DNA of 64,000 bases from Marchantia polymorpha subsp. ruderalis (Eukaryota; Streptophyta; Marchantiopsida; Marchantiales; Marchantiaceae), in NCBI GenBank assembly GCA_037833965.1, contig AP031352.1, positions 13,062,501 through 13,126,500 on the forward strand, written 5' to 3'. Below are positions 34,382 through 62,810 of this stretch, in pieces (position 1 is the first letter of the stretch; each line of letters starts with the position of its first letter). A program made the position numbers and the translations under genes. The notes beneath the pieces are model-generated. The model made no database searches. It was not told where the DNA came from and saw only the letters and a program-made list of their open reading frames with translations.

Positions 34382-34399
34382 TCCCCGGCAGCGGCGCCA
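34382..34399 (-). promoter_or_regulatory. Primer binding site of element F
   Basis: On the minus strand this is TGGCGCCGCTGCCGGGGA, identical to E1's PBS, 22 nt from the LTR end at 34422. It fixes F's minus orientation. The second F copy has lost this site. Confidence 0.88.
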
Positions 34400-34421
34400 A
34401 AAAGAAGTTGTCGGCTCCTTA

Positions 34422-36746: not shown

Positions 36747-37318
36747 TGCCCCCCTCCTCAATTGTGAGCGCCCACGCGAACATTTGGCTTGAGGGTCTGC
36801 CATTGGTGATCCTGTCAACGGATTGCTCCTAGGTTGGCCTGACCCAGGAAGAGTTCCTGTCGGAGGGATTTCCAATAGAACCGTTAGCTCAATGCTTGCA
36901 GTAGGTGAACGAGAACACCCTTGGCTCCCAGCAATCGGCGATGGCGATCTTTCTACAGAGTTCTCACTTTGAGTCTTCTTTGTAGTTCGCCGTTTTTCTT
37001 CTACGGCTTCCTTTTTTTTTTTTTTTTTTTTCCGAATCTCGACGGAGCTTACGTGTGGCTCTCGCACTCAGGTCCCCCACACCATCGCTCGTCGACATTC
37101 ACCGAGCATTCATCTCAAAAGTTCACTCAGAGGCTCTGCAGGTAGTGACTCCCACTCCGGCTTTTACAGCCCTTCCGCCAGGAACTAGCGTAGGGAACCC
37201 GGACTGGACTTCCCACTTCGGAACGAAGCCTCTTCATACGCCGTGGACGTCACCCTCGACTCACACCAAACGTAGGGAGTACAGGCCCGACTGAGGACTT
37301 AACTGAGATTGCTGCTCA
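36747..37318 (-). mobile_element. Element F internal region, copy 2, truncated
   Basis: Identical to 33787-34358 up to GCTGCTCAA near 37311-37319, where F sequence stops and plus-strand E-family LTR sequence (TCATTCTCGACG) begins. The PBS and the expected third LTR are missing. It includes the second gag remnant (about 36810-37078) and a poly-T run (37011-37031). Confidence 0.88.
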
Positions 37319-40300
37319 ATCATTCTCGACGTCGTCGCACAGGAGATTTCTTGTTGATTGAGGGAGAAGTGAGTGCGCGTGATTTGGAATTGAGAGCGAT
37401 TAGAGTTTGTCGAGAGAGAAAGAAGCGCGGGCAGTGCGGAAGTAGAATGAGCGGGCGAGCGAACCCCAGGAACGCAAGGACGAGACCGAGCAGATTGCGG
37501 ATGGTGCCGCTTCGCTTGCCGCAGAACGGGCTGCGCGCTTTTGAGGAGCGCTTAATAGCAAGAAAGCTCGATTTCTTGCTATGGGGATGGAATTACATCT
37601 GCGCGAATATGGTGCGCGAGTGGCTAGAGCCACAGGGACCACCCTCGCGCGGATTGCGTCCGCATGTTGACTGGTGGACAGTCCAAGATTGGGCGCAGGC
37701 GTTGGGCAGATGTGCTGGCATGCCAGGGCATCTCCTTTTCGACAGTGAGAGCATCAAGGTGACCAAGCAAGAAGAGGCGCAATTTGTGGAGCTGTTCAAG
37801 ACCGGGAGGTCTACCAAGAATGGGTACAGGACCCGTGATTACAAGGATCGATTTCGCCGGACTCTGTCCGCGGCGCTGATGCAATTACTGCAGCCGCACC
37901 GCGCCTGCTACATCACATTGTGGCAGGTCTCTTTTGTGGAGTGCGTCATCGAGGGAACTCCAATTCACTGGGCGAGCATCCTGCACAGGGTGATGCGACA
38001 GCACGCGTTTGAGGAGAAGGGGGGAACTCTAAACCATCTTTCTCCTTTCCTCATCAATTTTTATCGACAGCGGAATTGTTTGACAGCGGCGGAGCTTGAA
38101 CATTTTCCGCCATTGTCCATCGACCATCCCGGGAAGTATGTGCGGGAGAACGAGGTCGACACTGATGCGGAGGAGTCACCGACTTCTACCCCATCAAGAC
38201 GGAGGGATGAAGGGAGACACACCCCTGCAGCGCGAGTGCCGCGGAAGCGGCGATGGAGGGAAGAGTCCGAAGAGGAGCAGCATCAAGAACCCTCTGCTCC
38301 CATTCGACCGCGGCCGCTGTGCGAGCCATACAGCCGGCCGAAGCAGAAGGCACGCAGACTGGTGTTACCAGCTGACAGTGCAGACACGGCGACGATTGCG
38401 ACGGAGATAGGAAGTGCGTCGCCAGAAAGGCGAGAGGAAGCGCGGACGACCCAAGGAACAACGGGCCACGCTGCAACCTCGTCGGGAGAGAGGCCGCCTA
38501 CGGGCCAAGGGCCTCCGGAGTTACCACGTGCGATGCGGACAGATGTTCCGTTTGCGCACAGGCGAACCTCCGCGGACGGACGAGCCTCCGCGGACCGGCG
38601 AACACAAGTGGACGTGGATCTACGCTTACGCGTGGGAAGGAGCAGTCCGCCTGTGCACAGGCGCTCACCTGTGCACAGGTCGCCTGTGCACAGGTCGCCT
38701 GTGCACAGGACACCTCCACACGTGCCGCCTGTGCACAGGCAAGAATCACCCCCGTTCCAACGTAGGAAGGGGAAGGAGCCGGCGGAAGAACCGCCTACGA
38801 GACACCGGCCCTCGGGGCCAGACCCTCCGGCGCACCACGCGCCGCAATTTGCGCCTTCGGCGCCAGGGCCTTCGAGCAGAGGAGATACGAGCAGAGAGCG
38901 TGCGGAGGCCGCACCGTCGGCGGGAAGTCCGCCGATAGATGCGCCTTCGGCGGTAGGGCCTATAGGCCAAGGAACATCGGGCGTGCGGCCCCCGGCCATG
39001 TCGCCTTCGGCGATAGATGTCCGCGGCGCTACGCCTGCGACGGACAAGGCGCCGGCAAATGCGCCTGCGCACGGGCCGGGCACAGCCCCCACGGACCGAT
39101 CGAGGGAGCAGCAGACGGAGGAGCGGAGTGATTGTCCGCGGGATGAAATCTCGATGCGCGATGCGCAATCCAACCCCGCGCAGCCACCCTCCGCTCAATC
39201 GCCTTCGGCGACGGACGACGGCGACAGAGAGAATGCGGTAGGCAATCAACCAGCGAGCGACGGGGATGCCGCTCGGATACATTCGCCTTCCGCCTTAGAC
39301 ATTTTGGCGACGAGCAGCGAGGCTGCAGCCGTGCCTTCGCAGGCAGCACACGTCGAGGACGTGCAGCCCCACTCGGGGCAGTCGCCGACGCAATCAATGG
39401 CGACTGAAATTCTCCACTCGGATGATGACGACGGAGGCTCCACGGAAGAAATGTCAGGAGCAGAAGACACCGAGGAGGAGGAGGAGGAAATTGTTGGAGC
39501 GCCGGCGGCGGCGCTCTCTGAGCAGGTGATTCCGTTGCTGCGGTACTTGGATCGCAAGGTCGATAAATACGCCGACCCACTCCAGCCGGGATCTTACATC
39601 GAGTTAGTGCGCAGGCGGACTCGCACTAAAGTCCACACCAGCAAGCTATTAGCTAGAGTGGACCAGGAGTTGAGGGACTTGAAGGAGAAGCATGAGTGCT
39701 TGTGGGGACAGTACAAGCTTAATCAGAAATTCTACAAGCACTCCGAGAAGATGAAGGATGAGAAACTGGGCGAGCTCACCAAAGAGCAGGTGAAGGTCAA
39801 GGAAGCACTCAACTCTGAGCAGGCCCAGAATCGGATTTTGTCAGAGGAGCTCGTGCGACAGACGCGGTTGTTGGAACAATGTCAGCTCGCACGGCAGGCG
39901 GATGAAGAATTAATCCGCAGGTTGCAGTCAGAGTGTGGCGAATTGAGAGCGCAACGTGCCGAAGCCGAATCGCAATTAGTGACGATTGAAGAGGATCGCA
40001 GGAAGGAGGCGGATCGCACGAAGGTGGAGACGGCGAGGCGAGTCGCCCACTGTCTCAAGGGCTACGCCCACTGGGAAGTGAAGGCGCAGGAGAAACTCAC
40101 ACTGCGTGAGTTTGAATTGCGCGCAGCCGGGTTGTTGTCAGGCGACAGTAGGAGTCGGCGGAAGGTAGCGAAGAAGCTCGAGGCCTTTCTGTCGAAGGCA
40201 CAGGATACCATGTCCGCCCTCGAGGGGGAGGTGTCCGCGGCGTTGCAGCGTTTGGGACTGCGCAGTCGAGCGGAAGAGTGGTAGGGTAGGGAGTTAGTGC

Positions 40301-41385
40301 GCGGCAGTCGGCCGCGCAGGAGACGTAGTACAGGTTCCGCGGAGTGTAGTGTAGCGTGGTTCCGTGCAGGCGTGTAGCGTAGTACAGTGTAGTGTTAGGT
40401 AGGACTTAGAAGGTATAAAATAGTTCCCGGCGTTTTGCCTGGGGTTCTTTCCCATCAGAAGTGCAGATCAGGAACCCATTTCCTTTGCGTGTTTGTGTCC
40501 TTGAGTTCTGTCACCACGCACGAGGAGTTACAACTTAGCGTTCCGCATTTTGTAGCTGAAGGCCTTCGGCCGAATGTTCAGAGCTAGTACATTGGTTAGA
40601 GACTTGAGTAGATCGGATCTGCACCTGCGGGTGATTGCCGATGCTCAGAGCCAGTGACTAGTTAGATACTTGAACAGTTTCGCCCCTACTCCTTCGAGTG
40701 TTTCTTTCCGATTGTACTCCTTGGGATTTTTCCCCTGAATGCCAAAGTGAAGTTTTGCTACTTCGTGTAAGCCTTGGTTGTAAATTCAGGTTACGCTGCA
40801 GCAGGTGCCTTGAGGGTAACCCCTGTAGTATTTCTGGGAATGACAAGTGCCTGAGAATTCAAACTCTTCAATAGACTGTTGTTGTGTTACTGGAATGTTT
40901 CTCAGTGAGTCCTTCAGTGCGGACCTGTGTTCTCTGCGCGTTTTGTGAGTTGAGAGTGTTGTTCACCGCGTAGGAGTGACTTCGATCCGAAGTAGGCAGT
41001 CCAAACCGGGTTTCCTACACTAGCAGCAAGCTAGTGGAAGTGTTGTAAAAGCCGGAGTTGGAAGTCACTGCCCGCAGCTTTGCCGAGTGTGCTCGTGAGA
41101 GACTTTCCCCCTGAAATCTTGAAGTAGAGGTCCTAACGGATCTCTGGGTTGTGTTTCTGTAGTTTCAGGTGTGTGTGTGTGTGTGTGTTACGCTGCACTG
41201 TGCGACCTCCGAGTGCGCTCCGAGTGGACACTTGCAGTATTTCTGGGAGTGACAGTCGCCTGAGAATTCAAACTCCTCAATAGTCTGTTAAATGTGACAC
41301 TTTGTACCCTGTGTGTTCCTCTGTCCCTGTGGGTTCGACCTTTCTACCACTATATTGCAGTTTTAGCCTTTAGTGGGTTATTACA
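37319..41385 (+). mobile_element. E3: plus-strand E-family LTR, 5'-truncated
   Basis: It begins inside U3 just upstream of the reading frame and ends GGGTTATTACA at 41385, followed by reverse E2 sequence (CTGCGCGCAATTC). TATA is at 40414-40420, and the post-TATA hairpin (40426-40442) has one mismatch. A GT microsatellite lies near 41169-41188. The LTR start and the first 1.2 kb or so are missing at the junction with F. The expected target duplication cannot be checked because the left end is lost. Confidence 0.88.
37447..40284 (+). CDS. LTR-E3 U3 reading frame, nearly full length (945 codons from MSGRAN)
   Basis: An uninterrupted frame homologous throughout to the 49086-51971 copy; the open frame extends upstream to 37309 but I prefer ATG 37447, which matches the start conserved in family C. 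It ends early at a TAG after RSRAEEW where the other copies read CAG, removing about 37 C-terminal residues. It has an extra PVHRSPVHRSP unit compared with other copies. Features in order: transposon-protein-like N-terminus, KRRW basic patch, proline-rich middle, EEEEEE acidic run, LLRYLDRK, coiled coil, GYAHWEV. Function is unknown. Confidence 0.75.
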   Translation: MSGRANPRNARTRPSRLRMVPLRLPQNGLRAFEERLIARKLDFLLWGWNYICANMVREWLEPQGPPSRGLRPHVDWWTVQDWAQALGRCAGMPGHLLFDSESIKVTKQEEAQFVELFKTGRSTKNGYRTRDYKDRFRRTLSAALMQLLQPHRACYITLWQVSFVECVIEGTPIHWASILHRVMRQHAFEEKGGTLNHLSPFLINFYRQRNCLTAAELEHFPPLSIDHPGKYVRENEVDTDAEESPTSTPSRRRDEGRHTPAARVPRKRRWREESEEEQHQEPSAPIRPRPLCEPYSRPKQKARRLVLPADSADTATIATEIGSASPERREEARTTQGTTGHAATSSGERPPTGQGPPELPRAMRTDVPFAHRRTSADGRASADRRTQVDVDLRLRVGRSSPPVHRRSPVHRSPVHRSPVHRTPPHVPPVHRQESPPFQRRKGKEPAEEPPTRHRPSGPDPPAHHAPQFAPSAPGPSSRGDTSRERAEAAPSAGSPPIDAPSAVGPIGQGTSGVRPPAMSPSAIDVRGATPATDKAPANAPAHGPGTAPTDRSREQQTEERSDCPRDEISMRDAQSNPAQPPSAQSPSATDDGDRENAVGNQPASDGDAARIHSPSALDILATSSEAAAVPSQAAHVEDVQPHSGQSPTQSMATEILHSDDDDGGSTEEMSGAEDTEEEEEEIVGAPAAALSEQVIPLLRYLDRKVDKYADPLQPGSYIELVRRRTRTKVHTSKLLARVDQELRDLKEKHECLWGQYKLNQKFYKHSEKMKDEKLGELTKEQVKVKEALNSEQAQNRILSEELVRQTRLLEQCQLARQADEELIRRLQSECGELRAQRAEAESQLVTIEEDRRKEADRTKVETARRVAHCLKGYAHWEVKAQEKLTLREFELRAAGLLSGDSRSRRKVAKKLEAFLSKAQDTMSALEGEVSAALQRLGLRSRAEEW

Positions 41386-44053
41386 CTGCGCGCAATTCAA
41401 ACTCACGCAGTGTGAGTTTCTCCTGCGCCTTCACTTCCCAGTGGGCGTAGCCCTTGAGACAGTGGGCGACACGCCTCGCCGTCTCCACCTTCGTGCGATC
41501 CGCCTCCTTCCTGCGATCCTCTTCAATTATCACTAATTGCGATTCGGCTTCAGCACGTTGCGCTCTCAATTCGCCACACTCTGACTGTAACCTGCGGATT
41601 AACTCTTCATCCGCCTGCCGTGCGAGCTGACATTGTTCCAACAACCGCGTCTGTCGCACGAGCTCCTCTTACAAAATCCGATTCTGGGCCTGCTCAGAAA
41701 TGAGTGCTTCCTTGACCTTCACCTGCTCCTTGGTGAGCTCGTCCAGTTTCTCATCCTTCATCTTCTCGGAGTGCTTGTAGAATTTCTGATTAAGTTTGTA
41801 CTGACCCCACAAGCATGCATGCTTCTCCTTCAATTCCCTCAACTCCTGGTCCACTCTAGCTAACAGCTTGCTGGTGTGGACTTTAGTGCGAGTCCGCCTG
41901 CGCACTAACTCGATGTAAGATCCCGGCTGGAGTGGGTCGGCGTATTTATCGACCTTGCGATCCAAGTACCTCAGCAACGGAATCACCTGCTCAGAGAGCG
42001 CCGCCGCCGGCGCTCCAACAATTTCCTCCTCCTCCTCCTCGGTGTCTTCTGCTCCTGACATTTCTTCCGTGGAGCCTCCGTCGTCATCATCCGAGTGGAG
42101 AATTTCAGTCGCCATTGATTGCGTCGGCGACTGCCCCGAGTGGGGCTGCACGTCATCGACGTGTGTTGCCTACGAAGGCACGGCTGCAGCCTCGCTGCTC
42201 GTCGCCAAAATGTCTAAGGCGGAAGGCGAATGTACCCGAGCGGCATCCCCGTCGCTCGCTTGTTGGTTGTCTACCGCGTCCTCTCTGCCGCCGTCGTCCG
42301 CCGCCGAAGGCGATCGAGTGGAGGGTGGCTGCGCGGGGTTTGATTGCGCATCGCGCATCGAAATTTCATCCCGCGGACAGTCACTCCGCTCCACCGTCTG
42401 TTGCTGCTCCCTTGATCGGTCCGTGGGGGCTGTGCCCGGCCCGTGCGCAGGCGCAATTGCCGGCGCCTTGTCCGCCGCAGGCGTAGCGCCGCGGACATCC
42501 ATCGCCGAAGGCGACATGGCCGGGGGCCGCTCGCCCGATGTCCCTTGGCCTATAGGCCCTACCGCCGAAGGCGCATCTATCGGCGGACTTCCCGCCGATG
42601 GTGCAGCCTCCGCACGCTCCCTGCTCGTATCTCCTCGGCTCGAAGGCCCTGGCGCCGAAGGCGCAAATTGCGGCGCGTGGTGCGCCGGAGGGTCTGGCCC
42701 CGAGGGCCGGTGTCTCGTAGGCGGTTCTTCCGCCGGCTCCTTCCCCTTCCTACGTTGGAACGGGGGTGATTCTTGCCTGTGCACAGGCGGCACGTGTGGA
42801 GGTGTCCTGTGCACAGGCGACCTGTGCACAGGTGAGCGCCTGTGCACAGGCGGACTGCTCCTTCCCACGCGTAAGCGTAGATCCACGTCCACTTGTGATC
42901 GCCTGTCCGCGGAGGCTCGTCCGTCCGCGGAGGCTCGTCTGTGCGCAAACGGAACATCTGTCCGCATCGCACGTGGTAACTCCGGAGGCCCTTGGCCCGT
43001 AGGCGGCCTCTCTCCCGTCGAGGTTGCAGCGTGGCCCGTTGCTCCTGCGGTCGTCCGCGCTTCCTCATGCTTCTCTGGCGACGCACTTCCTTTCTCCGTC
43101 GCAATCGTCGCCGTGTCCGCACTGTCGGCTGGTAACACCAGTCTGCGTGCCTTCTGCTTCGGCCGGCTGTATGACTCGCACAGCGGCCGCGGTCGAATGG
43201 GAGCAGAGGGTTCTTGATGCTGCTCCTCTTCAGACTCTTCCCTCCATCGCCGCTTCCGCGGCACTCGTGCTGCAGGAGTGTGTCTCCCTTCGTCCCTCCG
43301 CCTTGATGGGGTAGAAGTCGGTGACTCCTCTGCATCAGTGTCGACCTCATTCTCCCGCACATACTTCCCGGGATGGTCGATGGACAATGGCGGAAAATGT
43401 TCAAGCTCCGCCGCTGTCAAACAATTCCGCTGTCGATAAAAATTGATGAGGAAAGGAGAAAGATGGTTTAGAGTTCCCCCCTTCTCCTCAAACGCGTGCT
43501 GTCGCATCACCCTGTGCAGGATGCTCGCCCAGTGAATTGGAGTTCCCTCGATGACGCACTCCACAAAAGAGACCTGCCACAATGTGATGTAGCAGGCGCG
43601 GTGCGGCTGCAGTAATTGCATCAGCGCCGCGGACAAAGTCCGACGAAATCGATCCTTGTAATCACGGGTCCTGTACCCATTCTTGGTAGACCTCCCGGTC
43701 TTGAACAGCTCCACGAATTGCGCCTCTTCCTGCTTGGTCACCTTGATGCTCTCACTGTCGAAAAGGAGATGCCCTGGCATGCCAGCACATCTTCCCAACG
43801 CCTGCGCCCAATCTTGGACTGTCCACCGATCAACATGCGGACGCAATCCGCGCGAGGGTGGTCCCTGTGGCTCTAGCCACTCGCGCACCATATTCGCACA
43901 GATTTAGTTCCATCCCCATAGCAAGAAATCGAGCTTTCTTGCTATTAAGCGCTCCTCGAAAGCGCGCAGCCCGTTCTGTGGTAGGCGAAGTGGCACCATC
44001 CGCAATCTGCTCGGTCTCGTCATTGCGTTCCTGGGGTTCGCTCGCCCGCTCAT
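41386..44053 (-). pseudogene. LTR-E2 U3 reading frame, broken
   Basis: Same protein in reverse, with ATG 44053 as the conserved start. It is interrupted by TAA after WGWN (43901 region, other copies TAC), by TAG after AAAVPS (about 42170, other copies CAG) and by TAA after QNRIL (about 41669, other copies TCA). The 3' end is lost at 41386 (after FELRA) because of the E3 insertion and the following deletion. Confidence 0.85.
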
Positions 44054-45168
44054 TCTACTTCCGCACCGCCCGAGCTTCTTTCTCTCTCGGCAAACTCTAA
44101 TCGCCCTCAATTCCAAATCACGCGCATTCACTTCTCCCTCAATCAACAAGAAATCTCCTGTGCGACGACGTCGAGAATGTTTAGCAGCCAGCAGATGGAT
44201 GCGCGTAGCGCGCACAAGAGATTGGAATCGCGAATTCAAGAATGGGACGTTCTCCGCCGCCCGGTCGAAGGTCATGGTCGGCTCTTGCTCGTGAAGAACG
44301 TCTCACTTGATGGCCGCGCCGGCTGTACGCTGGAACGGTCTTCGCTCTCACGCGCGGCTTCACGCTCCGCCGTCGTCGATTAAACTCTCACGCTCGAATT
44401 GGCGGATTTGAACTCCGCGAGCGTATTACCCTGCGGACATGGGGGCGTAGCGCCGAAGGCGAGTTTTCCGCCTTGCGCGGTACACTTGTTCGTACCGCCC
44501 CTCGGCCAATCCCCCTCTGCCTTGACGCGTGTGTCCGCATGTCGGACAAAAGTTCAACTCCTGCCTGTGCGCAGGCAGGAGCCTCGGCGGATGCTCCGCC
44601 GGCGCGGAACTTCATCCTCCTGTGCACAGGCAGTCGCCTGTGCGCAGGCGAATTCCGTGCGCGGCGTCGCGCTGGCGCGGAAGGCGTTGACCGTGGTCAG
44701 CTGTCTCCGTCCAGTCTGTCCGTTCCTGGTCTCTTCGTCGGCGCTTCCGCCGCCGCAACTCCGTCCGTCCAAGAGCGCATCCACCCGTCCCGTCCGCATG
44801 GTCCGTACCGATTTGATTTCTCTGGCGGCTCTTCCGCCGTACGCGGCGCTGCGCTGGCGCGGAAGGCGCCGTACACTTTCTACCTCACAAGGCGCATTTC
44901 TAGGGCCCAAGGCGGATTTTCCGCCGACGCCGAAGCGCCTGTGCACAGGCGAGCGCCTGTGTGTAGGCGGACTTCGCGCCTCCCCTAACCCTACTTCGCC
45001 TGTGCACAGGCGAACGCCTTCGTCCGCGCATAGGACAAAACTTGATTCCCCCTTCCGCGTAGGCGGAATTCGCGCCGGTGGTGAACTCTTTCCGCCGTAG
45101 GCGACCGCCTTCGTTTCTTCCAATAGTGATAACTCCCTAAGTCCTCATCCGTTCCAAGCGTCCTTGGA

Positions 45169-45196
45169 CTCGTTGGACTCAGTGCGTCGAGCTCTT
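45169..45196 (-). promoter_or_regulatory. U3 inverted-repeat module in E2
   Basis: Arms at 45169-45178 (CTCGTTGGAC) and 45196-45205 (TTCCAACGGG). The module sits early in E2's U3 when read on the minus strand, as in K (27438-27474). Confidence 0.6.
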
Positions 45197-45525
45197 TCCA
45201 ACGGGACCCTAACTTGGTCAAGGCGCCCGAGGGTTGACCTAATTATGGAGGGTTTCCCTACAGCCGCGGACGCAACCTCCGAAGGCGGGTTTTGCGCCTT
45301 GCGTCGTAGGGGTCCTAACTGCAGAGCTCGCAGGGAGGGTGGTGCCTGTCCTTACTGCTGCACCCCAAATCCCAGATTCTACGAGATCCCTCGAGAATCC
45401 CCGCGATCTTCCGGATTCACTCCGTTTTGATGTACCGAAGGCTATTTACAATGCTGCCAGGGTACAGTTTTCCAAAAAATGTTTTAATTTCCTCAAAATT
45501 GCCAAAAGTGGGGTACCACAACCTC

Positions 45526-46840
45526 ATCGTCGGAGGAGGAGAAGAAGAGGAAGAAGCATGGGGCAGCGAAGAAGAAGGGCACCCGACGAGTGACTACGGA
45601 CAGAGCGCCGGGAGACATAGCCTCGAAGATGGAGACCCTCGTGAAGGACTTCGCCGACCTCAAGGTTCAAGTGGTAGGCGGGCATGATCGCCGAAAATCA
45701 CCCGGGAGAGTGCGAGCGAACTTATGGTGTACTACGTGCGGAGCGGTGGGACATGCAAACACCGAGTGCCTTCCCACCCGTCCGTCATATCCAGTCAACG
45801 CAGTAGAGTGGGCACAACCGTACTATGGAGAGCACCCCCAGTACTATGGAGAGGCTAGCGAAGAGACAGCCTACGCCGTCCAGTCGGTTCCCACCCCTAC
45901 TGCAGTTTCAGCAATGCAAGTCCCACGATATCATCCGGTGGATCGGGCCACTACAGTACCCGTGAGGCGGAGAGCACCTCCAGGGACGTTTGACCCACCG
46001 CCACCGCGAGCTTGTTATAACTGCGGGGAAGTTGGACACTTCTCACCGCAGTGTCCCCATCCAAAAAGGCGAAACGATTATGTTCCGACATGCAGTAATT
46101 GCAAGAAGACCGGGCATACTGCGCCAGAGTGTGATCAGCCACCAGTTCCTCGGCCATCGGTACGATTTGTGAACCCTCCTGCCAAGGAGGACGTCCAAGT
46201 TAACCAGGTCGAAGTAGGTTCAGACGGGGATGACGAAGACGAAGAATGGCCGGCGGAAGAGGTTATGTGCGCACGGGTCGAAACTCGTAGTTCCAAGAAA
46301 TCGAAGGAGCAAGAGCGTGACACTCGCAAGCACGAACGGAGAACCGACGACCGGACGGGAAAAGGGAAGGAGAAGACATCCAGCAAGTCCGACTTGCGAC
46401 CTGCACGGAAGTCTTCGGTTACGCGAGAGGCACCAGCAGTGCGCCCCCAGACAGCAGTCGAGGATGAGCCAGTACGCTTGCTGAAACGGGACTATGCTCC
46501 GGATATCCGCAACGAGGTAACCAACCTGTTGAAGGAAGCGATCCGCACTCAAAAGGACCCACCGCGGCCAGACTTGCCATCCTTCCTTGGGGCGAAGTTG
46601 GCAGCCACCGTGGAACCTCGCAGAGCGTCGCCGCCGACCCCGGCGACCCAACGCGCCCACTATGATTTGGTCGAAGATCTCGGGAGTCGGAAAGTGAACA
46701 TCACGTTCAAGCAGCTCCTTGAGGACAACAAGACGTATCGAAGAATGTTGATGCTTTCGCTACGACGTCCGCGGAAGCCGCGCGCATCCACATCCTCTCA
46801 AGTATATCAAGTGAAGAGCGAAGACCAAGGGCCACCAGAA
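45526..46840 (+). pseudogene. E1 gag, 3' part with three zinc knuckles
   Basis: Continues E1 gag in phase after the E2 insertion. Three CCHC knuckles (CX2CX4HX4C) are visible: CTTCGAVGHANTEC, CYNCGEVGHFSPQC and CSNCKKTGHTAPEC, the first separated from the others by about 110 residues, the same spacing style as in G. These bind nucleic acid during packaging. A basic and acidic stretch and a segment homologous to the G region just before protease follow (ITFKQLLEDN…YRRML). The frame then meets integrase sequence at about 46840 with a change of phase, marking a large deletion of protease, RT and RNase H. Confidence 0.88.
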
Positions 46841-47580
46841 GGGATGATGCTGCCACAGTGGCAGCCTTCTTGTTTGAGTCGATTATCACACGCTACGGAT
46901 GTCCCTTAGAGCTAGTCGGCGACCGGGGCACGCATTTTCTGAATCAGATCATCGAAGATCTGACACGGTATTTCCACATCAAGCACCGGAAGACTACTCC
47001 ATACAATCCCAAGGCGAATGGACTGACGGAGAAGTCCAATGGTCTGCTGTGTAAAATACTACTCAAGGTCACGGTGAATCACGCTCACGACTGGGATACG
47101 AAGCTAGCAGCCGCACTATGGGCGTACCGGACAGCTGAGAAGATCACGACCAAACAGACACCATACTTTCTGGTGTATGGGCAACACCCGATCCTCCCGA
47201 TCGAATTTGAAGTACCCACCCAACGAACGTTGGATTTGCAGAGGATGGGCGCAGAGGAGAGTCAGCTCTACAGGTTACAGGAGGTCACGCTGCTGGATGA
47301 GAGGAGACGAGACGCCGAAGATCGCACCAGGAAAATCCAACTCCGCCGAAAGGAGAGATACGATAAAAAGATCAAACCTGTACTCCTGCAGGCGGGTGAT
47401 TTGGCATTGCTCTACGACAGCAGGCATGCCAGATTCCCAGGCAAACTGCACCTAAGATGGATAGGACCTTACAGGGTTGTCGAAGTATTCTCGAATGGAT
47501 CCATCCAACTTGCGGACCTGGCCGGCGATTTGTTAGGCACCCGAGTGAACGGGTGGCGGTTGAAGAAATACCACATGTGA
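46841..47580 (+). pseudogene. E1 integrase, C-terminal half
   Basis: From about DAATVAAFLFE the frame matches the integrase core of G: PLELVGDRGTHF (second catalytic Asp), HRKTTPYNPKANG, and Glu in NGLTEKSNG (third catalytic residue). The C-terminal part with LRWIGPYRVVEV and a final VNGWRLKKYHM follows. The zinc-binding HHCC domain and the first catalytic Asp are missing, so this is not a working integrase. The stop is at 47578-47580, about 20 nt before the polypurine tract. Confidence 0.88.
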
Positions 47581-47600: not shown

Positions 47601-47617
47601 AATTGAGGAGGGGAGCA
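47601..47617 (+). promoter_or_regulatory. Polypurine tract of E1
   Basis: AATTGAGGAGGGGAGCA immediately precedes the 3' LTR start TGTGGTACCCC (47618). Its position and its match to the F and G tracts define the LTR start for the whole E family. Confidence 0.88.
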
Positions 47618-47933
47618 TGTGGTACCCCACTTTTGGTAATTTTGAGGAAATTAAAACATTTTTGTAAAAAACTATACCCTGGCAGCATTGTACATAGCCT
47701 TCGGTACATCAAAACAGAGTGAATCCGGAAGATCGCGGGGATTCTCGAGGGATCTTGTAGAATCTAGGATTTGGGGTGCAGCAGTAAGGACAGGCACCAC
47801 CCTCCCTGCGAGCTCTGCAGTTAGGATCCCTGCGACGCAAGGCGCAAAACCCGCCTTCGGAGGTTGCGTCCGCGGCGGTAGGGAAATCCTCCATAATTAG
47901 GTTAACCCTCGGGCGCCTTGACTGAGTTAGGGT

Positions 47934-48010
47934 CTCGTTGGAAAGAGCTCGACGCACTGATTCCAACGAGTCCAAGAACGCTTGGAACGGATGAGGACTT
48001 AGGGAGTTAT
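47934..48010 (+). promoter_or_regulatory. U3 inverted repeat and conserved box, best copy
   Basis: CTCGTTGGAA (47934-47943) and TTCCAACGAG (47961-47970) are perfect 10-bp inverted repeats around AGAGCTCGACG…; then CCAAGAACG, GGAACGGATGAGGACT and AGGGAGTTAT (to 48010). The same order is seen in C, F, G, H, I and J. It could be a protein-binding enhancer, an RNA structure in the 3' end of genomic RNA, or part of termination/packaging. Confidence 0.7.
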
Positions 48011-48863
48011 CACTATTGGAAGATACGTAGACGTTCGCCTTCGGCGGAAGGAGTTCGCCACCGGCGGGAATTCCGCCTACGCGGAAGGGGGAATCAAGTT
48101 TTGTCCTATGCGCTGACGAAGGACGTTCGCCTGTGCACAGGCGAAGTAGGGTTTGGGGAGGCGCGAAGTCCGCCTACGCACAGGCGTTCGCCTGTGCACA
48201 GGCGCTTCGGCGTCGGCGGAAAATCCGCCTTGGGCCCTAGAAATGCGCCTTGTGAGGTAGAAAGTGTACGGCGCCTTCTGCGCCAGCGCGGCGCCGCGGA
48301 CGAGCAAGGAGCCACCAGAGTAATCAAATCCGTACGGACCATGCGGACGGGACGGGTGGATGCGCTCTGGGACGGACGGAGTGCGGCGGCGGAAGCGCCG
48401 ACGAAGAGACAAGGAACGGACAGACTGGACGGAGACGGCTGACCACGGTCAACGCCTTCCGCGCCAGCGCGACACCGCACACGGAATTCGCCTGCGCACA
48501 GGCGAGCGCCTGTGCACAGGAGGATGAAGTTCCGCGCCGGCGGAGAATCCGCCGAGGAGTCTGCCTGCGCACAGGCAGGAGTTGAACTTTTGTCTGACAT
48601 GCGGACACACGCGTCAAGGCAGAAGGGGATTGGCCGAGGGGCGGTACGAACAAGTGTACCGCGCAAGGCGGAAAACTCGCCTTCGGCGCTACGCTCCCAT
48701 GTCCGCGGGGTAATACGCTCGCGGAGTTCAAATCCGCCAATTCGAGCGTGAGAGTTTAATCGGCGACGGCGGAGCGTGAAGCCGCGCGTGAGAGCGGAGA
48801 CCGTTCCAGCGTAGAGCCGGCGCGGCCATCAAGTGAGACGTTCTCCACGAGCAAGAGCCGACC

Positions 48864-51800
48864 ATGACCTTCGACCGGGCGGCGGAGAACGTCCCATTCT
48901 TGAATTCGCGATTCCAATCTCTTGTGCGCGCTGCGCGCATCCATCTGCTGGCTGCTAAACATTCTCGACGTCGCCGCATAGGAGATTTCTTGGTGATTGA
49001 GGGAGAAGTGAATGCGCGTGATTTGGAATTGAGGGCGATTAGAGTTTGCCGAGAGAGAAAGGAGCTCGGGCGGTGCGGAAGTAGAATGAGCGGGCGAGCG
49101 AACCCCAGGAACGCAATGACGAGACCGGGCAGATTGCGGATGGTGCCACTTCGCCTACCACAGAACGGGCTGCGCGCTTTCGAGGAGCGCTTAATAGCAA
49201 GAAAGCTCGATTTCTTGCTATGGGGATGGAACTACATCTGTGCGAATATGGTGCGCGAGTGGCTAGAGCCACAGGGACCACCCTCGCGCGGATTGCGTCC
49301 GCATGTTGATCGGTGGACAGTCCAAGATTGGGCGCAGGCGTTGGGAAGATGTGCCGGCATGCCAGGGCATCTCCTTTTCGACAGTGAGAGCATCAAGGTG
49401 ACCAAGCAGGAAGAGGCGCAATTTGTGGAGCTGTTCAAGACCGGGAGGTCTACCAAGAATGGGTACAGGACCCGTGATTACAAGGATCGATTTCGCCGGA
49501 CTTTGTCCGCGGCGCTGATGCAATTACTGCAGCCACACCGCGCCTGCTACATCACATTGTGGCAGGTCTCTTTTGTGGAGTGCGTCATCGAGGGAACTCC
49601 AATTCACTGGGCGAGCATCCTGCACAGGGTGATGCGACAGCACGCTTTTGAGGAGAAGGGGGGAACTCTAAACCATCTCTCTCCTTTCCTCATCAATTTT
49701 TATCGACAGCGGAATTGTTTGACAGCGGCGGAGCTTGAGCATTTTCCGCCATTGTCCGTCGACCATCCCGGGAAGTATGTGCGGGAGAATGAGGTCGACA
49801 CTGATGCAGAGGAGTCACCGACTTCTACCCCATCAAGGCGGAGGGACGAAGGGAGAAACACTCCTGCAGCACGAGTGCCGCGGAAGCGGCGATGGAGAGA
49901 AGAGTCCGAAGAGGAGCAGCATCAAGAACCCTCTGCTCCCATTCGACCGCGGCCGTTGTACGAGTCATACAGCCGGCCGAAGCAGAAGGCACGCAGACTG
50001 GTGTTACCAGCCAACAGTGCGGACACGGCGACGATTGCGACGGAGAAAGGAAGTGCGTCGCCAGAGAAGCATGAGGAAGCGCGGACGACCGCAGGAGCAA
50101 CGGACCACGCTGCAGCCTCGACGGGCGAGAGGCCGCCTACGGGCCAAGGGCCTCCGGAGTTACCACGTGCGTTGCGGACAGATGTTCCGTTTGCGCACAG
50201 ACGAGCCTCCGCGGACAGGCGATCACAAGTGGACGTAGATCTACGCTTACGCGTGGGAAGGAGCAGTTCGCCTGTGCACAGGCGCTCGCCTGTGCACAGG
50301 ACACCTCCACACGTGCCGCCTGTGCACAGGCAGGAATCACCCCCGTTCCACCGTAGGAAGGGGAAGGAGCCGGCGGAAGAGCCGCCTACGAGACACCGGC
50401 CCTCGGGGCCAGACCCTCCGGCGCACCACGCGCCGCAATTGGCGCCTTCGGCGCCAGGGCCTTCGAGCCGAGGAGATACGAGCAAGGAGCGTGCGGAGGC
50501 CGCACCATCGGCGGGTAGTCCGCCAATAGATGCGCCTTCGGCGGTAGGGCCTATGGGCCAAGGGACAGCAGGCGAGCGGCCCCCGGCCATGTCGCCTTTG
50601 GCGGTGGACGTCCGCGGCGCTACGCCTACGGCGGACAAGGCGCCGGCATTTGCGCCTGCGCACAGGCCAAGCACAGCCCCCACGGACCGATCAAGGGAGC
50701 AGCAACAGACGGAGGAGCGGAGTGACTGTCCGCGGGATGAAATTTCGATGCGCGATGCGCAATCAAACCCCGCGCAGCCACCCTCCGCTCGATCGCCTTC
50801 GGCAGCGGGCGTCGGCGGCAGAGAGGACACGGTAGACGACCAGCAAGCGAGCGGCGGGGATGCCGCACGGGCACATTCGCCTACCGCCTTAGACATTTTG
50901 GCGAAGAGCAGCGAGGCTGCAGCCGTGCCTTCGCAGGCAGCACACGTCGACGACGTGCAGCCCCACTCGGGTCAGTCGCCGACGCAATCAATGGCGACTG
51001 AAATTCTCCACTCGGATAATGACGACGGAGGCTCCACCAAAGAAATGTCAGGAGCAGAGGACACTGAGGAGGAGGAGGAGGAAATTGTTGGAGCGCCGGC
51101 GGCGGCGCTCTCTGAGCAGGTGATTCCGTTGCTGAGGTACTTGGATCGCAAGGTCGATAAATACGCCGACCCACTTCAGCCGGGATCTTACATCGAGTTA
51201 GTGCGCAGGCGGACTCGCACTAAAGTCCACACTAGCAAGCTATTAGCTAGAGTGGACCAGGAGTTGAGGGAATTGAAGGAGAAGCATGCATGCTTGTGGG
51301 GTCAGTATAAACTTAATCAGAAATTCTACAAGTACTCCGAGAAGGTGAGGGATGAGAAACTGGACGAGCTCACCAAGGAGCAGGTGAAGGTCAAGGAAGC
51401 ACTAATTTCTGAGCAGGCCCAGAATCGGATTTTGTCAGAGGAGCTCGTGCGACAGACGCGGTTGTTGAAACAATGTCAGCTCGCACGGCAGGCGGATGAG
51501 GAATTAATCCGCAGGTTACAGTCAGAGTGTGGCGAATTGAGAGCGCAACGTGCTGAGGCCGAATCGCAATTAGTGATAATGGAAGAGGATCGCAGGAAGG
51601 AGGCAGATCGCACGAAGGTGGAGACGGCGAGGCGTGTCGCCCACTGTCTCAAGGGCTACGCCCACTGGGAAGTGAAGGCGCAGGAGAAACTCACACTGCG
51701 TGAGTTTGAACTGCGCGCAGCCGGGTTGTTGTCAGGCGACAGTAGGAGTCGGCGGAAGGTAGCAAAGAAGCTCGATGCTTTTCTGTCGAAGGCGCAAGAT

Positions 51801-51971
51801 ACCATGTCCGCCCTCGAAGTGGAGGTGTCCGCGGCGTTGCAACGATTGGGACTGCGCAGTCGAGCGGAAGATTGGCAGGGTAGGGAGTTAGTGCGCGGCA
51901 GTCCGCCGCGCAGGAGACGTAGTACAGGTTCCGCGGAGTGTAGTGTAGCGTGGTTCCATGCAGGCGTGTAG
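48864..51971 (+). CDS. Intact long reading frame inside U3 of the E1 3' LTR (1035 codons)
   Basis: Fully open from ATG 48864; ATG 49086 (residue 75) is the better start because family C begins there, giving about 961 residues. Approximate order by residue of the long form: 95-295 folded part with LLWGWN, GYRTRDYKDR, GTPIHW and GGTLNHLSPF, similar by eye to the 'putative plant transposon protein' family of plant retroelements; 338-345 basic PRKRRW, possibly a nuclear signal; 350-690 proline/serine-rich and repeat-rich; then ATEILHS, an acidic EEEEEE run and EQVIPLLRYLDRK; about 790-900 coiled coil; then HCLKGYAHWEV, KLTLREFELRAAG and a basic tail ending in WFHAGV. There are no zinc knuckles and no protease, RT or DDE motifs. 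It ends 36 bases before the LTR's TATA box, so it is in U3. What it does is unknown; packaging, nuclear or chromatin roles are guesses. Confidence 0.82.
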   Translation: MTFDRAAENVPFLNSRFQSLVRAARIHLLAAKHSRRRRIGDFLVIEGEVNARDLELRAIRVCRERKELGRCGSRMSGRANPRNAMTRPGRLRMVPLRLPQNGLRAFEERLIARKLDFLLWGWNYICANMVREWLEPQGPPSRGLRPHVDRWTVQDWAQALGRCAGMPGHLLFDSESIKVTKQEEAQFVELFKTGRSTKNGYRTRDYKDRFRRTLSAALMQLLQPHRACYITLWQVSFVECVIEGTPIHWASILHRVMRQHAFEEKGGTLNHLSPFLINFYRQRNCLTAAELEHFPPLSVDHPGKYVRENEVDTDAEESPTSTPSRRRDEGRNTPAARVPRKRRWREESEEEQHQEPSAPIRPRPLYESYSRPKQKARRLVLPANSADTATIATEKGSASPEKHEEARTTAGATDHAAASTGERPPTGQGPPELPRALRTDVPFAHRRASADRRSQVDVDLRLRVGRSSSPVHRRSPVHRTPPHVPPVHRQESPPFHRRKGKEPAEEPPTRHRPSGPDPPAHHAPQLAPSAPGPSSRGDTSKERAEAAPSAGSPPIDAPSAVGPMGQGTAGERPPAMSPLAVDVRGATPTADKAPAFAPAHRPSTAPTDRSREQQQTEERSDCPRDEISMRDAQSNPAQPPSARSPSAAGVGGREDTVDDQQASGGDAARAHSPTALDILAKSSEAAAVPSQAAHVDDVQPHSGQSPTQSMATEILHSDNDDGGSTKEMSGAEDTEEEEEEIVGAPAAALSEQVIPLLRYLDRKVDKYADPLQPGSYIELVRRRTRTKVHTSKLLARVDQELRELKEKHACLWGQYKLNQKFYKYSEKVRDEKLDELTKEQVKVKEALISEQAQNRILSEELVRQTRLLKQCQLARQADEELIRRLQSECGELRAQRAEAESQLVIMEEDRRKEADRTKVETARRVAHCLKGYAHWEVKAQEKLTLREFELRAAGLLSGDSRSRRKVAKKLDAFLSKAQDTMSALEVEVSAALQRLGLRSRAEDWQGRELVRGSPPRRRRSTGSAECSVAWFHAGV

Positions 51972-52007
51972 CGTAGTGCAGTGTAGTGCTAGGTAGGACT
52001 TAGAAGG

Positions 52008-52036
52008 TATAAAATAGTTCCAGGCGTTTTGCCTGG
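52008..52036 (+). promoter_or_regulatory. E1 3' LTR TATA box and post-TATA hairpin
   Basis: TATAAAA (52008-52014), then stem CCAGGC (52020-52025), loop GTTTT and stem GCCTGG (52031-52036). In LTR C the stem is CAAGGC/GCCTTG (53824-53840): the second and third pairs changed on both sides together. Confidence 0.75.
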
Positions 52037-52988
52037 GGTTCTTTCCCATCAGAAGTGCAGATCAGGAACCCATTTCCTTTGCGTGTTTGTGTCCTTGAGT
52101 TCTGTCACCACGCACGAGGAGTTACAACTTAGCGTTCCGCATTTTGTAGCTGAAGGCCTGCGGCCGAATGTTCAGAGCTAGTACATTGGTTAGAGACTTG
52201 AGTAGTTCGGATCTGCACCTGCGGGTGACTGCCGATGCTCAGAGCCAATGACTAGTTAGATACTTGAACAGTTTCGCCCCTACCCCTTCGAGTGTTTCTT
52301 TCTGATTGTACTCCTTGGGATTTTTCCCCTGAATGCCAAAGTGAAGTTTTGCTACTTCGTGTAAGCCTTGGTTGTAAATTCAGGTTACGCTGCAGCAGGT
52401 GCCTTGAGGGTAACTCCTGTAGTATTTCTAGGAATGACAAGTGCCTGAGAATTCAAACTCTTCAATAGACTGTTGTTGTGTTACTGGAATGTTTCTCAGT
52501 GAGTCCTTCAGTGCGGACCTGTGTTCTCTGCGCGTTTTGTGAGTTGAGAGTGTTGTTCGCCGCGTAGGAGTGACTTCGATCCGAAGTAGGCAGTCCAAAC
52601 CGGGTTTCCTACACTAGCAGCAAGCTAGTGGAAGTGTTGTAAAAGCCGGAGTTGGGAGTCACTGTCCGCAGCTTTGCCGAGTGTGCTCGCGAGAGACTTT
52701 TTCCCCCTGAAATCTTGAGTAGAGGTCCTAACGGATCTCTGGGTTGTGTTTCTGTAGTTTCAGGTGTGTGTGTGTGTGTGTGTGTTACGCTGCACTGTGC
52801 GACCTCCGAGTGCGCTCCGAGTGGACACTTGCAGTATTTCTGGGAGTGACAGTTGCCTGAGAATTCAAACTCCTCAATAGTCTGTTAAAACGTGACACTT
52901 TGTACCCTGTGTGTTCCTCTGTCCCTGTGGGTTCGACCTTTCTACCACTATATTGCAGTTTTAGCCTTTAGTGGGTTATTACACTATA

Positions 52989-53767
52989 GAAAATCGCAGT
53001 CTTATGTGGAGATTGTCAAGAGCACGACGAGGAGCAAGGTGGCCACTTGGGCCACTAGGTGCCAAACATTGCAGGATAGGTATACTGCCCTCTGACAGCA
53101 CCTGGCGATCACGCAGAGGCTACACCAAACCCTGCAACAACAGCGGGAGGATGTGGCGACGAAAGCCCAAGCGGATGCCGAGCTAATGCGGGCAAAGATC
53201 GAGTCGGAATTGCAGGAAGAGCGGAGACAAAACCGCATTCTAACAGAGGAGCTTGCGCGCCAGATGCGCGCATTAGAGGAAAGTCAAAGCACGCGCAAGG
53301 AGGATGAGGAGTTGTTGCGCAACTTGCAATCCGAGTGCGCGGAGTTGAGGGCGCAGCGCGCAGATGCGGAGATGCAGCTAGCAGAGGTGGAAGGCAGCAG
53401 CCGGACTCGAGAGGAGTTGGTGACGCGGGTGACTCATTGTCTAAAAGGATACGCCCACTGGGAAGTGGCGGCACAAAAGAAGATCACGCTCAGGGAGTTT
53501 GAGCTTCGGGCGGCGGCATTGACGGAGGGTGACAGTCGGAGTCAGCGGCGAGTAGCGAGGAAATTAGACGCCTTCTTGTCGGGTGCGCGCGACACTATGG
53601 CGCACTTGGAGTCGGAAGTGACTGCAGTCCTTCGGCGGCTGGGGTTGCGCAGCCGGTCGGAAGATTGGCAGGGTGGAGAGAAAGTGCGAGGCAGTCCGGC
53701 GCGCCGGAGGCGCAGTACTGGATCTGCAGAGTGTAGTAGAGTAGCTTGGTTTCGTGCAGGAGTTTAG
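52989..53767 (+). pseudogene. LTR-C U3 reading frame, 3' part
   Basis: Continues the frame cut at 22388. SYVEIVK aligns with SYIELVR of the E copies, then a coiled coil (with a TGA near 53092 where the E copies have no stop) and an open stretch from 53153 to 53767. The C-terminus is strikingly like E: HCLKGYAHWEV, ITLREFELRAA, GDSRSQRRVARKLDAFL, RRLGLRSRSEDWQG, RRRRSTGSAECS. The strong match at both ends and loose match in the middle point to selection on the ends. Confidence 0.8.
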
Positions 53768-53811
53768 AGTAGCAGGTAGTGCAACGTAGTGTTAGTTAGG
53801 ACCTTAGAGGG

Positions 53812-53840
53812 TATAAAGTAGTTCAAGGCGTTTTGCCTTG
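53812..53840 (+). promoter_or_regulatory. LTR C TATA box and post-TATA hairpin
   Basis: TATAAAG (53812-53818), then CAAGGC-GTTTT-GCCTTG (53824-53840), a perfect 6-bp stem with the same loop as in E. Confidence 0.72.
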
Positions 53841-54748
53841 GGATTCTTCCAGTTTCGGAAATGCAGATCAGGAACTCACTTTCTCGGCGTGTTTGTGCAT
53901 TTGGTCCTGGCATCACGTAGAGGAGCTGCAGCATAGTGAAGTTACCGCATGTTGTAGCTGAAGGCCTTTGGCTGAATGTTCAGAGCTAGTACACCGGTTA
54001 GAGACTTGAGTAGTGCGGATCTGCACCTGCGGGTGATTTCTGATGCTCAGAGCCGGTTGCGAGTTAGATACTTGAACAGTTCCCCCTTACACCTTCGAGT
54101 GACATATCCTGATTGTACTCCTATGGAAAGTTTCCCCTGAATGCCAAAGTGAAGTTTTGTTACTTCGTGTAAACCTTGGTTATCAATTCAGGTTATGTGT
54201 GTGTGTTACTGGATTGTGTCTCAGTTGAGTTCTCAGTCGGGCCTGTACTCTCTGCGCTTGGTGTGAGTCGAGGGTGACGTCCACTGCATATGAGGGACTT
54301 CGTTCCGAAGTGGGAAATCCAATCCGGGTTCCCTACGCTAGCAGAAACTGGCGGAAGGGTTGTAAAAGCTGGAGTGGGAGTCACTACCTGCAGAGCCTCT
54401 GAGTGAACTTTTGAGATACTTTCCCCCTGAAATCCTAAGCGGAGGTCCTGACCGACCTCCGAGTTGTGCTTTTCCAGTTTCAGGTGTGTGTGTGTGTGTG
54501 TGTGTGTGTTGAGTGACTTACGCTGCACTGTGCATCCTCCGAGCATCCTCCGAGTCGAGCATCCTCCGAGTGGCCTCCGAGTTGAGCACTGCAGTATTTC
54601 TGGGAGTGACAGTCGCCTGAGAATTCAAACTCTCCAAAAGTCTATTAAACGTGACACTTTGTACTCTGTGTGTTGCCTCTGTCCCTATGGGTTCAATCTT
54701 TTTACCACCATACTGCAGTTTTAGCCTTTGCTGGGTTATTACATGAAG

Positions 54749-59978: not shown

Positions 59979-60615
59979 TTTCCATTTGTCAAATTCTTTG
60001 TCTGAGCTTGAATAAGCTTCATGTGGTAACCCACTTTTTTTTTTGTGCGGAATTTAAAACAGTTTTGGAAAACAGTACCGCAGCAGCAGTGAAAATAGTA
60101 ATCGGTACATTTAAATAGAGTGAAAATGGATAATCGCGGGTCTCGTATGATCTCGTAGAATCCAAGAGTTGGGCGCAATGTCCGGAACAGTCGCCCCGGC
60201 CCGAACGATCGATTCTGAAGGGAATCTACTTCGGCGCAAGGCGCAGAATACGCCTTTGGCGCTAGACGCCTTTGGCACTAGACGCCTTTGGCGCTAGGGA
60301 AATTCCTCACAACTTATTCAGTTCATAACGCATTGACTTTTTTAGGGTTTCGTTGGAAAGAACTCAACGCGCTCTTTCTAACGAGCCCAAGAACGCTTGA
60401 AACGGATGAGCAATCAAGGAGTTACAATTGTCGGAAGATATTGATAGGGAGGGCCTTCGGCGGAAGGGCTAGGTCGACGGACGAGCTGCCTTCGGCCCTA
60501 GGTCAACGCCTTCGAGGGTGAACTCCTTTGTACAAGCGCCTTCGGCGCCAGCGCATCAAGATTAGGTCAACGCCTTTGGGGCAAGCAACTCCATACGGTC
60601 CGCCTTCGGCCCAAC

Positions 60616-62631: not shown

Positions 62632-62810
62632 CCAACGCCTTCGGCGGTACGGACATGTGCGCCTTCGGCGGAACGGAACTCCTACGGCAAAAGCGCCTTC
62701 GGGAGGACAAGAGGGATCGACGGAAAGTACAAGACTAGTTGACTGCGGTCAACGCCTTCGGCGATGCACCTACTTCGAAGGACGTCTTAAAGAAGTTCGC
62801 CTTCGGCGCT

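What the first reader, a model, noticed from the sequence alone, without database searches (positions are those of the whole stretch)
48864..51971. A gene of about 1000 codons lives inside the U3 of a giant retrotransposon LTR
Seen: the frame lies between an LTR start fixed by a polypurine tract (47618) and that LTR's own TATA box (52008); homologous frames occupy the same place in LTRs C, K, E2 and E3. Known: LTRs rarely code for protein; mouse mammary tumour virus sag in U3 is the textbook case, and extra plant retroelement frames usually lie in the internal region. Inference: the protein would be translated from RNA covering the 3' U3 or from a promoter within U3, and every solo LTR preserves the gene.
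Basis: partly seen in the sequence, partly recalled or inferred. Interest (0 to 1): 0.88.

Follow-up and report, generated by a model that had tools for sequence, protein, structure and literature searches.

The report
Conserved gene inside retrotransposon LTRs
A liverwort's jumping genes carry a protein gene, kept by natural selection, inside the repeated ends (LTRs) that normally hold only control signals, so insertions and even some leftover solo ends can carry an open copy of it.

Summary
Confirmed, with corrections. Window 47618-52983 is a true 3' LTR (5366 bp, TGTGG...TTACA, polypurine tract before it) of a Ty3/gypsy element in a 241-Mb plant genome whose only named protein relatives are Marchantia. 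An open frame fills most of U3 and ends 37 nt before the TATA box. Six other elements in this genome, each with a matching 5-bp target duplication, carry the homologous sequence in both terminal LTRs; in three of the six the frame is open in both. One of these belongs to a diverged family (LTRs 4870 bp, identical) with an 851-codon frame, 51% identical. The protein is under purifying selection: in its N-terminal domain 8 nonsynonymous against 56 synonymous variants over 39 pieces. Constraint begins near ATG 49116, not 48864. Within family A this domain is as constrained as RT-integrase; between families it evolves clearly faster. Motifs from both ends of the protein occur 4648 and 4729 times in the genome. 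Two short LTR-like sequences lack just this frame; one is a gag-pol-less element with identical LTRs, so the gene is not needed in cis and may act in trans. No Pfam match above chance, PDB match or named non-Marchantia relative was found. Expression and function are not shown. New variant of a known kind.

The parts
47618..52983 (+). 3' LTR (family A), 5366 bp, TGTGG...TTACA
   Evidence: full-length matches elsewhere and PPT junction
47618..49115 (+). U3 upstream of the gene; codons 48867-49100 without clear protein-level constraint
49116..51971 (+). U3 gene, 951 codons plus stop; start context AACGCAATG in most copies seen
   Evidence: constraint begins about here
49116..49760 (+). N-terminal domain (~215 aa), most constrained
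   Evidence: 8 nonsyn: 56 syn variants; 58% identity to K family
49761..51107 (+). variable Ala/Pro/Arg/Ser-rich linker (~449 aa)
   Evidence: 150 nonsyn: 120 syn; composition
51108..51968 (+). C-terminal domain: conserved LLRYLDRK motif, then a charged heptad-like region (coiled coil inferred by eye)
   Evidence: 48 nonsyn: 65 syn
52008..52015 (+). TATA box, 37 nt after the stop codon (34 nt in K family)
47605..47617 (+). polypurine tract GAGGAGGGGAGCA
   Evidence: 752 exact PPT|LTR junctions of this kind in the genome
29575..29593 (+). primer binding site candidate, 22 nt after the end of the 5' LTR
   Evidence: tRNA identity recalled, not tested
27814..29552 (+). remnant of the same element's 5' LTR (end of the gene, TATA, R-U5)
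   Evidence: 98.9% to 51253-52983; leader follows
29639..30601 (+). gag, first part
30601..45520 (-). nested minus-strand solo LTR of family A (flanks GAGGT), itself split by further insertions; frame broken (3 stops)
45521..46456 (+). gag, second part
46762..47574 (+). integrase end of pol; RT and RNase H not found in this copy
22397..27786 (-). solo LTR of family A with flanks GTACC, frame broken (2 stops)
20644..22388 (+). K-type LTR gene, N-terminal and middle part, split by the insertion
52984..54743 (+). K-type LTR, C-terminal part of its gene, TATA, R-U5
31462..36746 (-). E mini-element: two identical 2325-bp LTRs around a 635-bp internal region, no gag-pol, no U3 gene
60022..62632 (+). 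F, LTR-like (a second LTR start lies at 60616, so possibly composite; no second copy shown); lacks the gene; 95% identical to LTR A from just after the gene's stop

Best explanation
A Ty3/gypsy retrotransposon lineage of a Marchantia-type liverwort encodes an accessory protein wholly inside U3 of its LTRs. Shown: the frame lies in both LTRs of elements of two diverged families, ends 34-37 nt before the TATA box, and has been kept by purifying selection on the protein. Inferred: an mRNA starting in U3 upstream of 49116, or a spliced subgenomic RNA joined just before ATG 49116, runs through the gene and ends at the element's own poly(A) site in R, so 5', 3' and solo LTRs with an open frame could each be a transcription unit. 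The protein (basic N-terminal domain, variable acidic linker, basic C-terminal coiled-coil-like domain) most likely multimerises and binds nucleic acid or chromatin, and helps the element in trans, as a regulator or anti-silencing factor or in particle assembly. A plausible origin is a former 3' gene taken into U3 when a new polypurine tract arose right after pol.
For: LTRs, flanks and gag-PR-RT-RH-IN. C4 element: three LTRs, flanks CAGAC, all three frames open. K element C1:377831-393369: flanks GGACG, LTRs identical over 4870 bp, 851-codon frame in both, gag-PR and RT-IN frames of 945 and 946 codons. Selection: N-domain dN/dS 0.03-0.08 in six within-family comparisons, against 0.05-0.08 for three full or nearly full RT-IN comparisons (0.16 and 0.17 for two pieces of a fourth) and 0.07-0.30 for six of seven gag comparisons (0.45 for a short one); 8:56 nonsyn:syn variants against a neutral ratio of 2.3-2.7:1; in the 9 of 11 aligned LTRs with an open frame (six independent sets), frame indels are 3, 18 or 36 nt, while flanking U3 and R-U5 show many of 1-2 nt. 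Trans action: the E LTR matches the K LTR at 98.5% from position 3912, the last base of the K stop codon, and lacks gene and gag-pol, yet its two LTRs are identical. Abundance: 4648 N-motif and 4729 C-motif matches, reversed-pattern controls 0 and 2. The PPT follows pol by 24 nt.
Against: No transcript, protein or function was seen. Between families A and K the gene evolves much faster than RT-IN (N-domain 58% and pN 0.30, RT-IN 90% and pN 0.06), and its linker is weakly constrained. Both AlphaFold models are unusable (mean pLDDT 45.5 and 48.3). No relative of known function. The splice site is a candidate only. Mobility of E shows only that the gene is not needed in cis; it could be dispensable. 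Of the 136 best family A matches, 72 have no frame of 1030 codons or more, and 8 of the other 64 are listed with a stop. Multimerisation and binding rest on composition, charge and by-eye heptads.
Confidence: 0.7

Rival explanations
1. The frame is a long open frame by chance or by GC-rich composition in a non-coding U3.
For: The linker is palindrome-rich with weak constraint.
Against: Third-position bias, in-frame indels, dN/dS far below 1 in the N- and C-terminal domains and 51% protein identity between families whose synonymous sites are at or near saturation; N- and C-terminal motifs 4648 and 4729 times.
Confidence: 0.02
2. A host gene captured once by an LTR and carried as a passenger, not useful to the element.
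For: The protein shows no similarity to the element's gag and no Pfam match above chance; orphan family.
Against: Selection across many insertions and in two diverged families, conserved geometry relative to the TATA box. A passenger would decay. No search for a single-copy host version was made.
Confidence: 0.08
3. The protein works structurally for the element (a second capsid-, envelope- or particle-like protein) rather than as a regulator of LTR expression.
For: N-domain constraint within family A is in the range of RT-IN; late position after pol is where plant env-like frames sit (recalled).
Against: No similarity to the element's gag; no capsid or envelope family in Pfam scans. Transmembrane segments and folds were not tested.
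Confidence: 0.25
4. The gene is a host-serving restriction factor that spreads on solo LTRs and limits the element.
For: Solo LTRs with open frames exist.
Against: Elements with (nearly) identical LTRs keep the gene open in both ends.
Confidence: 0.05

Closest known systems
Mouse mammary tumour virus sag (U3-encoded superantigen; recalled; the virus appears in the search listings)
   Same: A protein gene held within U3 and thus in both LTRs.
   Different: Animal betaretrovirus; here about 950 codons in a plant Ty3/gypsy element, conserved between diverged families. The two proteins were not compared.
Retrosat2/RIRE3/RIRE8 ORF0 (PMC3485330; passages read)
   Same: Plant elements with LTRs of about 3 kb or more and an extra ORF of unknown function.
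   Different: ORF0 lies upstream of the gag-pol ORF, not in the LTR.
Orchid gypsy elements with an AlkB domain (PMC9289625; one abstract passage)
   Same: Extra protein in a large plant gypsy element.
   Different: Its extra ORF has a known enzyme domain; the passage seen does not place it in the LTR.
Cassandra retrotransposons (PMC10853983; search listing and abstract start)
   Same: A gene-derived functional sequence inside a plant LTR.
   Different: 5S rDNA-related promoter sequence, not a protein gene.
Marchantia polymorpha hypothetical proteins AXG93_... (e.g. P0003-P0006)
   Same: Homologous N- and C-terminal regions; unannotated gene models of the same protein family.
   Different: Named as hypothetical genes, many fragmentary; their genomic context was not seen.

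Membership tests
LTR retrotransposon, Ty3/gypsy | Two direct LTRs TG...CA with target-site duplication | tested here: met
   Flanks CAGAC, GAGCC, CGCCG, GTCTC, CCTTC (family A) and GGACG (K); not met by the window's own damaged copy
LTR retrotransposon, Ty3/gypsy | gag and PR-RT-RNaseH-IN in this order | tested here: met
   Pfam on L029: Retrotrans_gag, zf-CCHC, Asp_protease_2, RVT_1, RT_RNaseH, Integrase_H2C2, rve
LTR retrotransposon, Ty3/gypsy | PPT next to 3' LTR and PBS after 5' LTR | tested here: met
   752 PPT|LTR and 1227 LTR|leader junctions, reversed controls 0; which tRNA primes was not tested, and the primer site lies 22 nt from the LTR
U3-encoded accessory gene (arrangement as in MMTV sag) | Frame wholly within U3, upstream of the LTR's own TATA box, in both LTRs | tested here: met
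   that transcription starts at this TATA box is assumed
U3-encoded accessory gene (arrangement as in MMTV sag) | Expressed from a spliced or U3-initiated subgenomic RNA | not testable with these tools
   No RNA data; candidate 3' splice site only
MMTV sag protein family | Sequence homology | not tested
   The product has no Pfam or PDB sequence match; sag itself was not compared
Putative plant transposon protein (PF20167, Transposase_32) | Match to the family profile | tested here: not met
   No PF20167 match in hmmscan of the product, of P0002 or of the 9 members of A1; the whole-genome scan was empty too, but its controls rang nowhere. A distant relation was not tested by profile comparison
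Retrosat2-type ORF0 | Extra ORF upstream of gag-pol | tested here: not met
   The gag frame starts at base 87 of the internal region; the extra ORF is in U3
Non-autonomous LTR element (for E) | LTRs, leader and PPT without gag-pol | tested here: met
   635-bp internal region matching only leader, the start of gag and the PPT end of L029, with stops in all three frames

The most novel reading that the evidence does not exclude
A plant retrotransposon lineage has turned its LTR into a self-contained, trans-acting gene cassette: the U3 protein recognises the element's own LTRs (perhaps their repeated GC-rich palindromes) and switches them on or shields them from silencing, so solo LTRs with an open frame remain a dispersed source of the factor, which non-autonomous partners exploit after dropping exactly this gene.
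Probability: 0.25. Interest if true: 0.92.

Novelty: new variant of a known kind. Interest (0 to 1): 0.8.

Why it matters
LTRs are treated as non-coding ends; here they carry a protein gene kept by selection. That puts two copies in each insertion, lets some solo LTRs keep it, and makes it extremely numerous (4648-4729 motif matches; if every one were a 5-kb LTR, about 23 Mb or a tenth of the assembly, a rough upper estimate). It accounts for more than a hundred named 'hypothetical proteins' of Marchantia polymorpha in the listings, offers a natural deletion test of trans action (the E mini-element), and warns that dating insertions by LTR divergence, or masking LTRs, can treat coding sequence as neutral.

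Tried and rejected
Tried without result: Pfam, PDB by sequence, two AlphaFold models, both too poor to search with (no fold search was run), similarity to gag, a PF20167 genome scan whose controls did not ring. Weak Pfam hits (CENP-K, E 0.0018, 2 of 9 members; Extensin_1, E 0.00019, 1 of 9) were set aside as coiled-coil and proline-rich matches, a judgement not tested further. Rejected: chance ORF; start codon 48864; homologous frames in the 31462-37319 units. Paper searches listed no title or abstract start describing an LTR-encoded protein in a plant element; only passages of PMC3485330 and PMC9289625 were opened, and most subscription papers are not in the library.

Rows dropped: one search printed only comparisons of at least 60 codons and 8 changes, from 8 sources; those with at least 6 changes. 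In one search, pieces under 86% identity or about 150 residues, and ten loci (L001, L003, L025, L027-L029, L031-L033, L037: duplicates, near-duplicates or internal regions), were left out; the 39 pieces kept are not all independent (some are two parts of one LTR). In one search two of the 11 LTRs are tandem copies and three belong to one element.
Full report
Setting. The window lies in a genome of 241,466,482 bases in 9 contigs. Every named protein relative in the listings (4 of 4 listed; 120 of 128 listed; 120 of 121 listed) is Marchantia polymorpha; the rest are unnamed 'lgn' entries that cannot be assigned. I take the source to be a Marchantia or close liverwort; no call names the species.

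The LTR. The unit 47618-52983 (5366 bp) recurs from its first to its last base in several of the fetched places. It starts TGTGGTACCCC directly after GAGGAGGGGAGCA and ends TTACA. On contig C4 three such LTRs alternate with two internal regions of about 5.8 kb, the whole flanked by CAGAC on both sides. The internal region shows gag with zinc knuckles, protease, RT, RNase H and integrase by Pfam. Five further elements with both LTRs and matching 5-bp flanks were found: GAGCC, CGCCG and CCTTC on C6, GTCTC on C5, and the K element GGACG on C1. The homologous sequence is in both terminal LTRs in six of six. The frame is open in both in three (CAGAC, CGCCG, GGACG; the CGCCG 5' LTR has lost part of U3 before the gene), broken in both in two (GAGCC, CCTTC), and in GTCTC open in the 5' LTR but split by a nested LTR in the 3'. 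Exact PPT|LTR junctions number 752 (control 0) and LTR|leader junctions 1227 (control 0).

The window's own copy is the 3' LTR of an element whose 5' LTR is reduced to 27814-29552 and a few bases at 22389, whose gag is split by a nested minus-strand solo LTR (30601-45520, flanks GAGGT, itself split by further insertions), and whose pol keeps only the integrase end. Its outer flanks, CTCCA and CTATA, do not match.

The gene. Among 11 LTRs aligned whole, the frame is open over 1044-1054 codons in 9, which are six independent sets. Among the best 136 matches to the C-terminal part, 64 have an open frame of 1030 codons or more, 8 of them listed with a stop inside the match; these are the closest hits, not a random sample. 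Of eight solo LTRs with matching flanks, four have the frame open (C3 GTCCG, C5 CGTGG, C4 AAAGT, C6 GCAAT) and four do not (C6 GTATT, C4 TACAG, and GTACC and GAGGT in the window). In the open aligned copies, indels inside the frame are 3, 18 or 36 nt, whereas the flanking U3 and R-U5 show many of 1 or 2 nt. Pairwise dN/dS within family A: N-domain 0.03-0.08, C-domain 0.12-0.18, linker 0.26-0.56 with one value of 1.05 on 8 changes; against other families the N-domain gives 0.11-0.27. Controls: RT-IN 0.05, 0.06 and 0.08 in full or nearly full comparisons, 0.16 and 0.17 in two pieces of a fourth, 0.54 in the window's integrase remnant; gag 0.07-0.30 in six comparisons and 0.45 in a short one; the frame holding protease 0.56-0.80. 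Two other elements have gag-PR as one frame while the L029 copy used as reference has gag and protease in different frames, so its protease values are not a fair control. Across 39 pieces, single-base codon variants are N-domain 8 nonsynonymous to 56 synonymous, C-domain 48:65, linker 150:120, against a neutral expectation of 2.3-2.7 to 1.

Where it starts. Codons between 48867 and 49100 show dN/dS of 0.48 to 2.7 in 17 comparisons, so clear constraint begins near ATG 49116. The context AACGCAATG is found in most family A copies, in L030 and in the C1 K copy; the K-type copies in the window, L017 and L034 differ, as do a few others. K-type copies have a TGTGTG-rich stretch ending in GCAG just upstream, a candidate 3' splice site; family A mostly has CCCCAG or CTCCAG. 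This is a lead, not evidence of splicing.

A second family. The K element on C1 has two LTRs identical over 4870 bp, flanks GGACG, gag-PR and RT-IN frames of 945 and 946 codons, and an 851-codon frame in each LTR. Its LTR protein is 51% identical to that of family A (N-domain 58%, linker 41%, C-domain 57%), with synonymous sites at or near saturation (pS 0.72-0.80, pN 0.30-0.42). RT-IN is 90% identical (pN 0.06), so between families the LTR protein evolves much faster than pol; within family A its N-domain is in the same range. The TATA box follows the stop by 34 nt in K and 37 nt in A.

Natural deletions. The E unit in the window has two 2325-bp LTRs identical at 2325 of 2325 positions, a nearly identical PPT and leader, and 635 bp of internal sequence without gag-pol. 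Its LTR matches the K LTR at 98.5% from position 3912, the last base of the K gene's stop codon, to the end, and has no match to the gene. The LTR-like F (60022, or 60616, to 62632) matches LTR A at 95% from position 4360, just after that gene's stop at 4354; it was not shown to have a partner. So the gene behaves as a discrete module, dispensable in cis. Trans supply is the natural reading, but dispensability is not excluded.

Abundance. Degenerate DNA patterns for a motif near each end of the protein give 4648 (controls 0 and 0) and 4729 (controls 1 and 1) matches; an exact pattern at the TATA box gives 3225 (controls 0). Exact junctions with internal sequence are fewer, so many copies are probably solo LTRs or fragments; this is inference.

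Function. The product has no Pfam match (the nine members of A1 give only weak hits such as CENP-K and Extensin_1) and no PDB match; structure models failed. N- and C-terminal domains are basic (+10, +15), the linker acidic (-11) and rich in Ala, Pro, Arg and Ser. From this I infer, weakly, a multimeric nucleic-acid- or chromatin-binding factor. Four perfect palindromes of 12 nt or more lie in U3 before the gene and four in the linker (0.5 expected in each by a first-order model; three of each four are of the CCTGTGCACAGG kind); the C-terminal part has two (0.2 expected). They would be candidate sites, or may be small spreading repeats.

Origin. The pol stop lies 24 nt before the PPT. If an ancestor had this gene between pol and its PPT, a new PPT arising right after pol would put the gene into U3 in one round of reverse transcription. 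This is a proposal; no ancestor was found.

Novelty. Searches of the held library listed no plant or Ty3/gypsy element with a conserved protein gene in its LTR. Retroviral U3 genes are known (recalled), so I call it a new variant of a known kind.

Noticed in passing
29553-29593, also L025, L026, L037: The tRNA-like primer site (TGGCGCCGCTGCCGGGGAC) starts 22 nt after the LTR end; the gap TAAGAAGCCGACAACTTCTTTT could form a hairpin (AAGAAG/CTTCTT), with a G.U pair in E and K (by eye). How the 22 nt would be removed before integration is unexplained.
   Followed up: no
G000 C4:14471828-14499533; C2:31340956-31386546: LTR-internal-LTR-internal-LTR tandem inside one pair of target duplications, and five matches at an 11,184-bp period on C2.
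   Followed up: partly
48129, 48190, 50270, 50318 and other LTR copies in the window: Perfect palindrome GCCTGTGCACAGGC repeated in U3 and, in frame, in the linker of the gene.
   Followed up: partly
32944-33421 and 35904-36381; 60841-61071: 15-bp tandem array in the E LTR and 21-bp array in F.
   Followed up: no
55114-60053, minus strand: gag-pol of a different gypsy family (RT-IN pieces 47-56% identical), with stops.
   Followed up: no
K element C1 and CCTTC element C6, internal regions: gag-PR and RT-IN lie in one frame separated by a single stop codon (945 + 946 and 985 + 946 codons), suggesting expression by stop read-through; in the C4 copy L029 gag and protease are in different frames.
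   Followed up: partly
G000 contig C1, about 2.2-3.3 Mb: Motif places repeat with offsets near 393 and 366 kb, suggesting large duplications on this 5.59-Mb contig (perhaps a sex chromosome; guess).
   Followed up: no
P0078: A Marchantia polymorpha gene model joins integrase-like sequence to part of the LTR protein's N-domain, as a reading from pol into U3 would.
   Followed up: no
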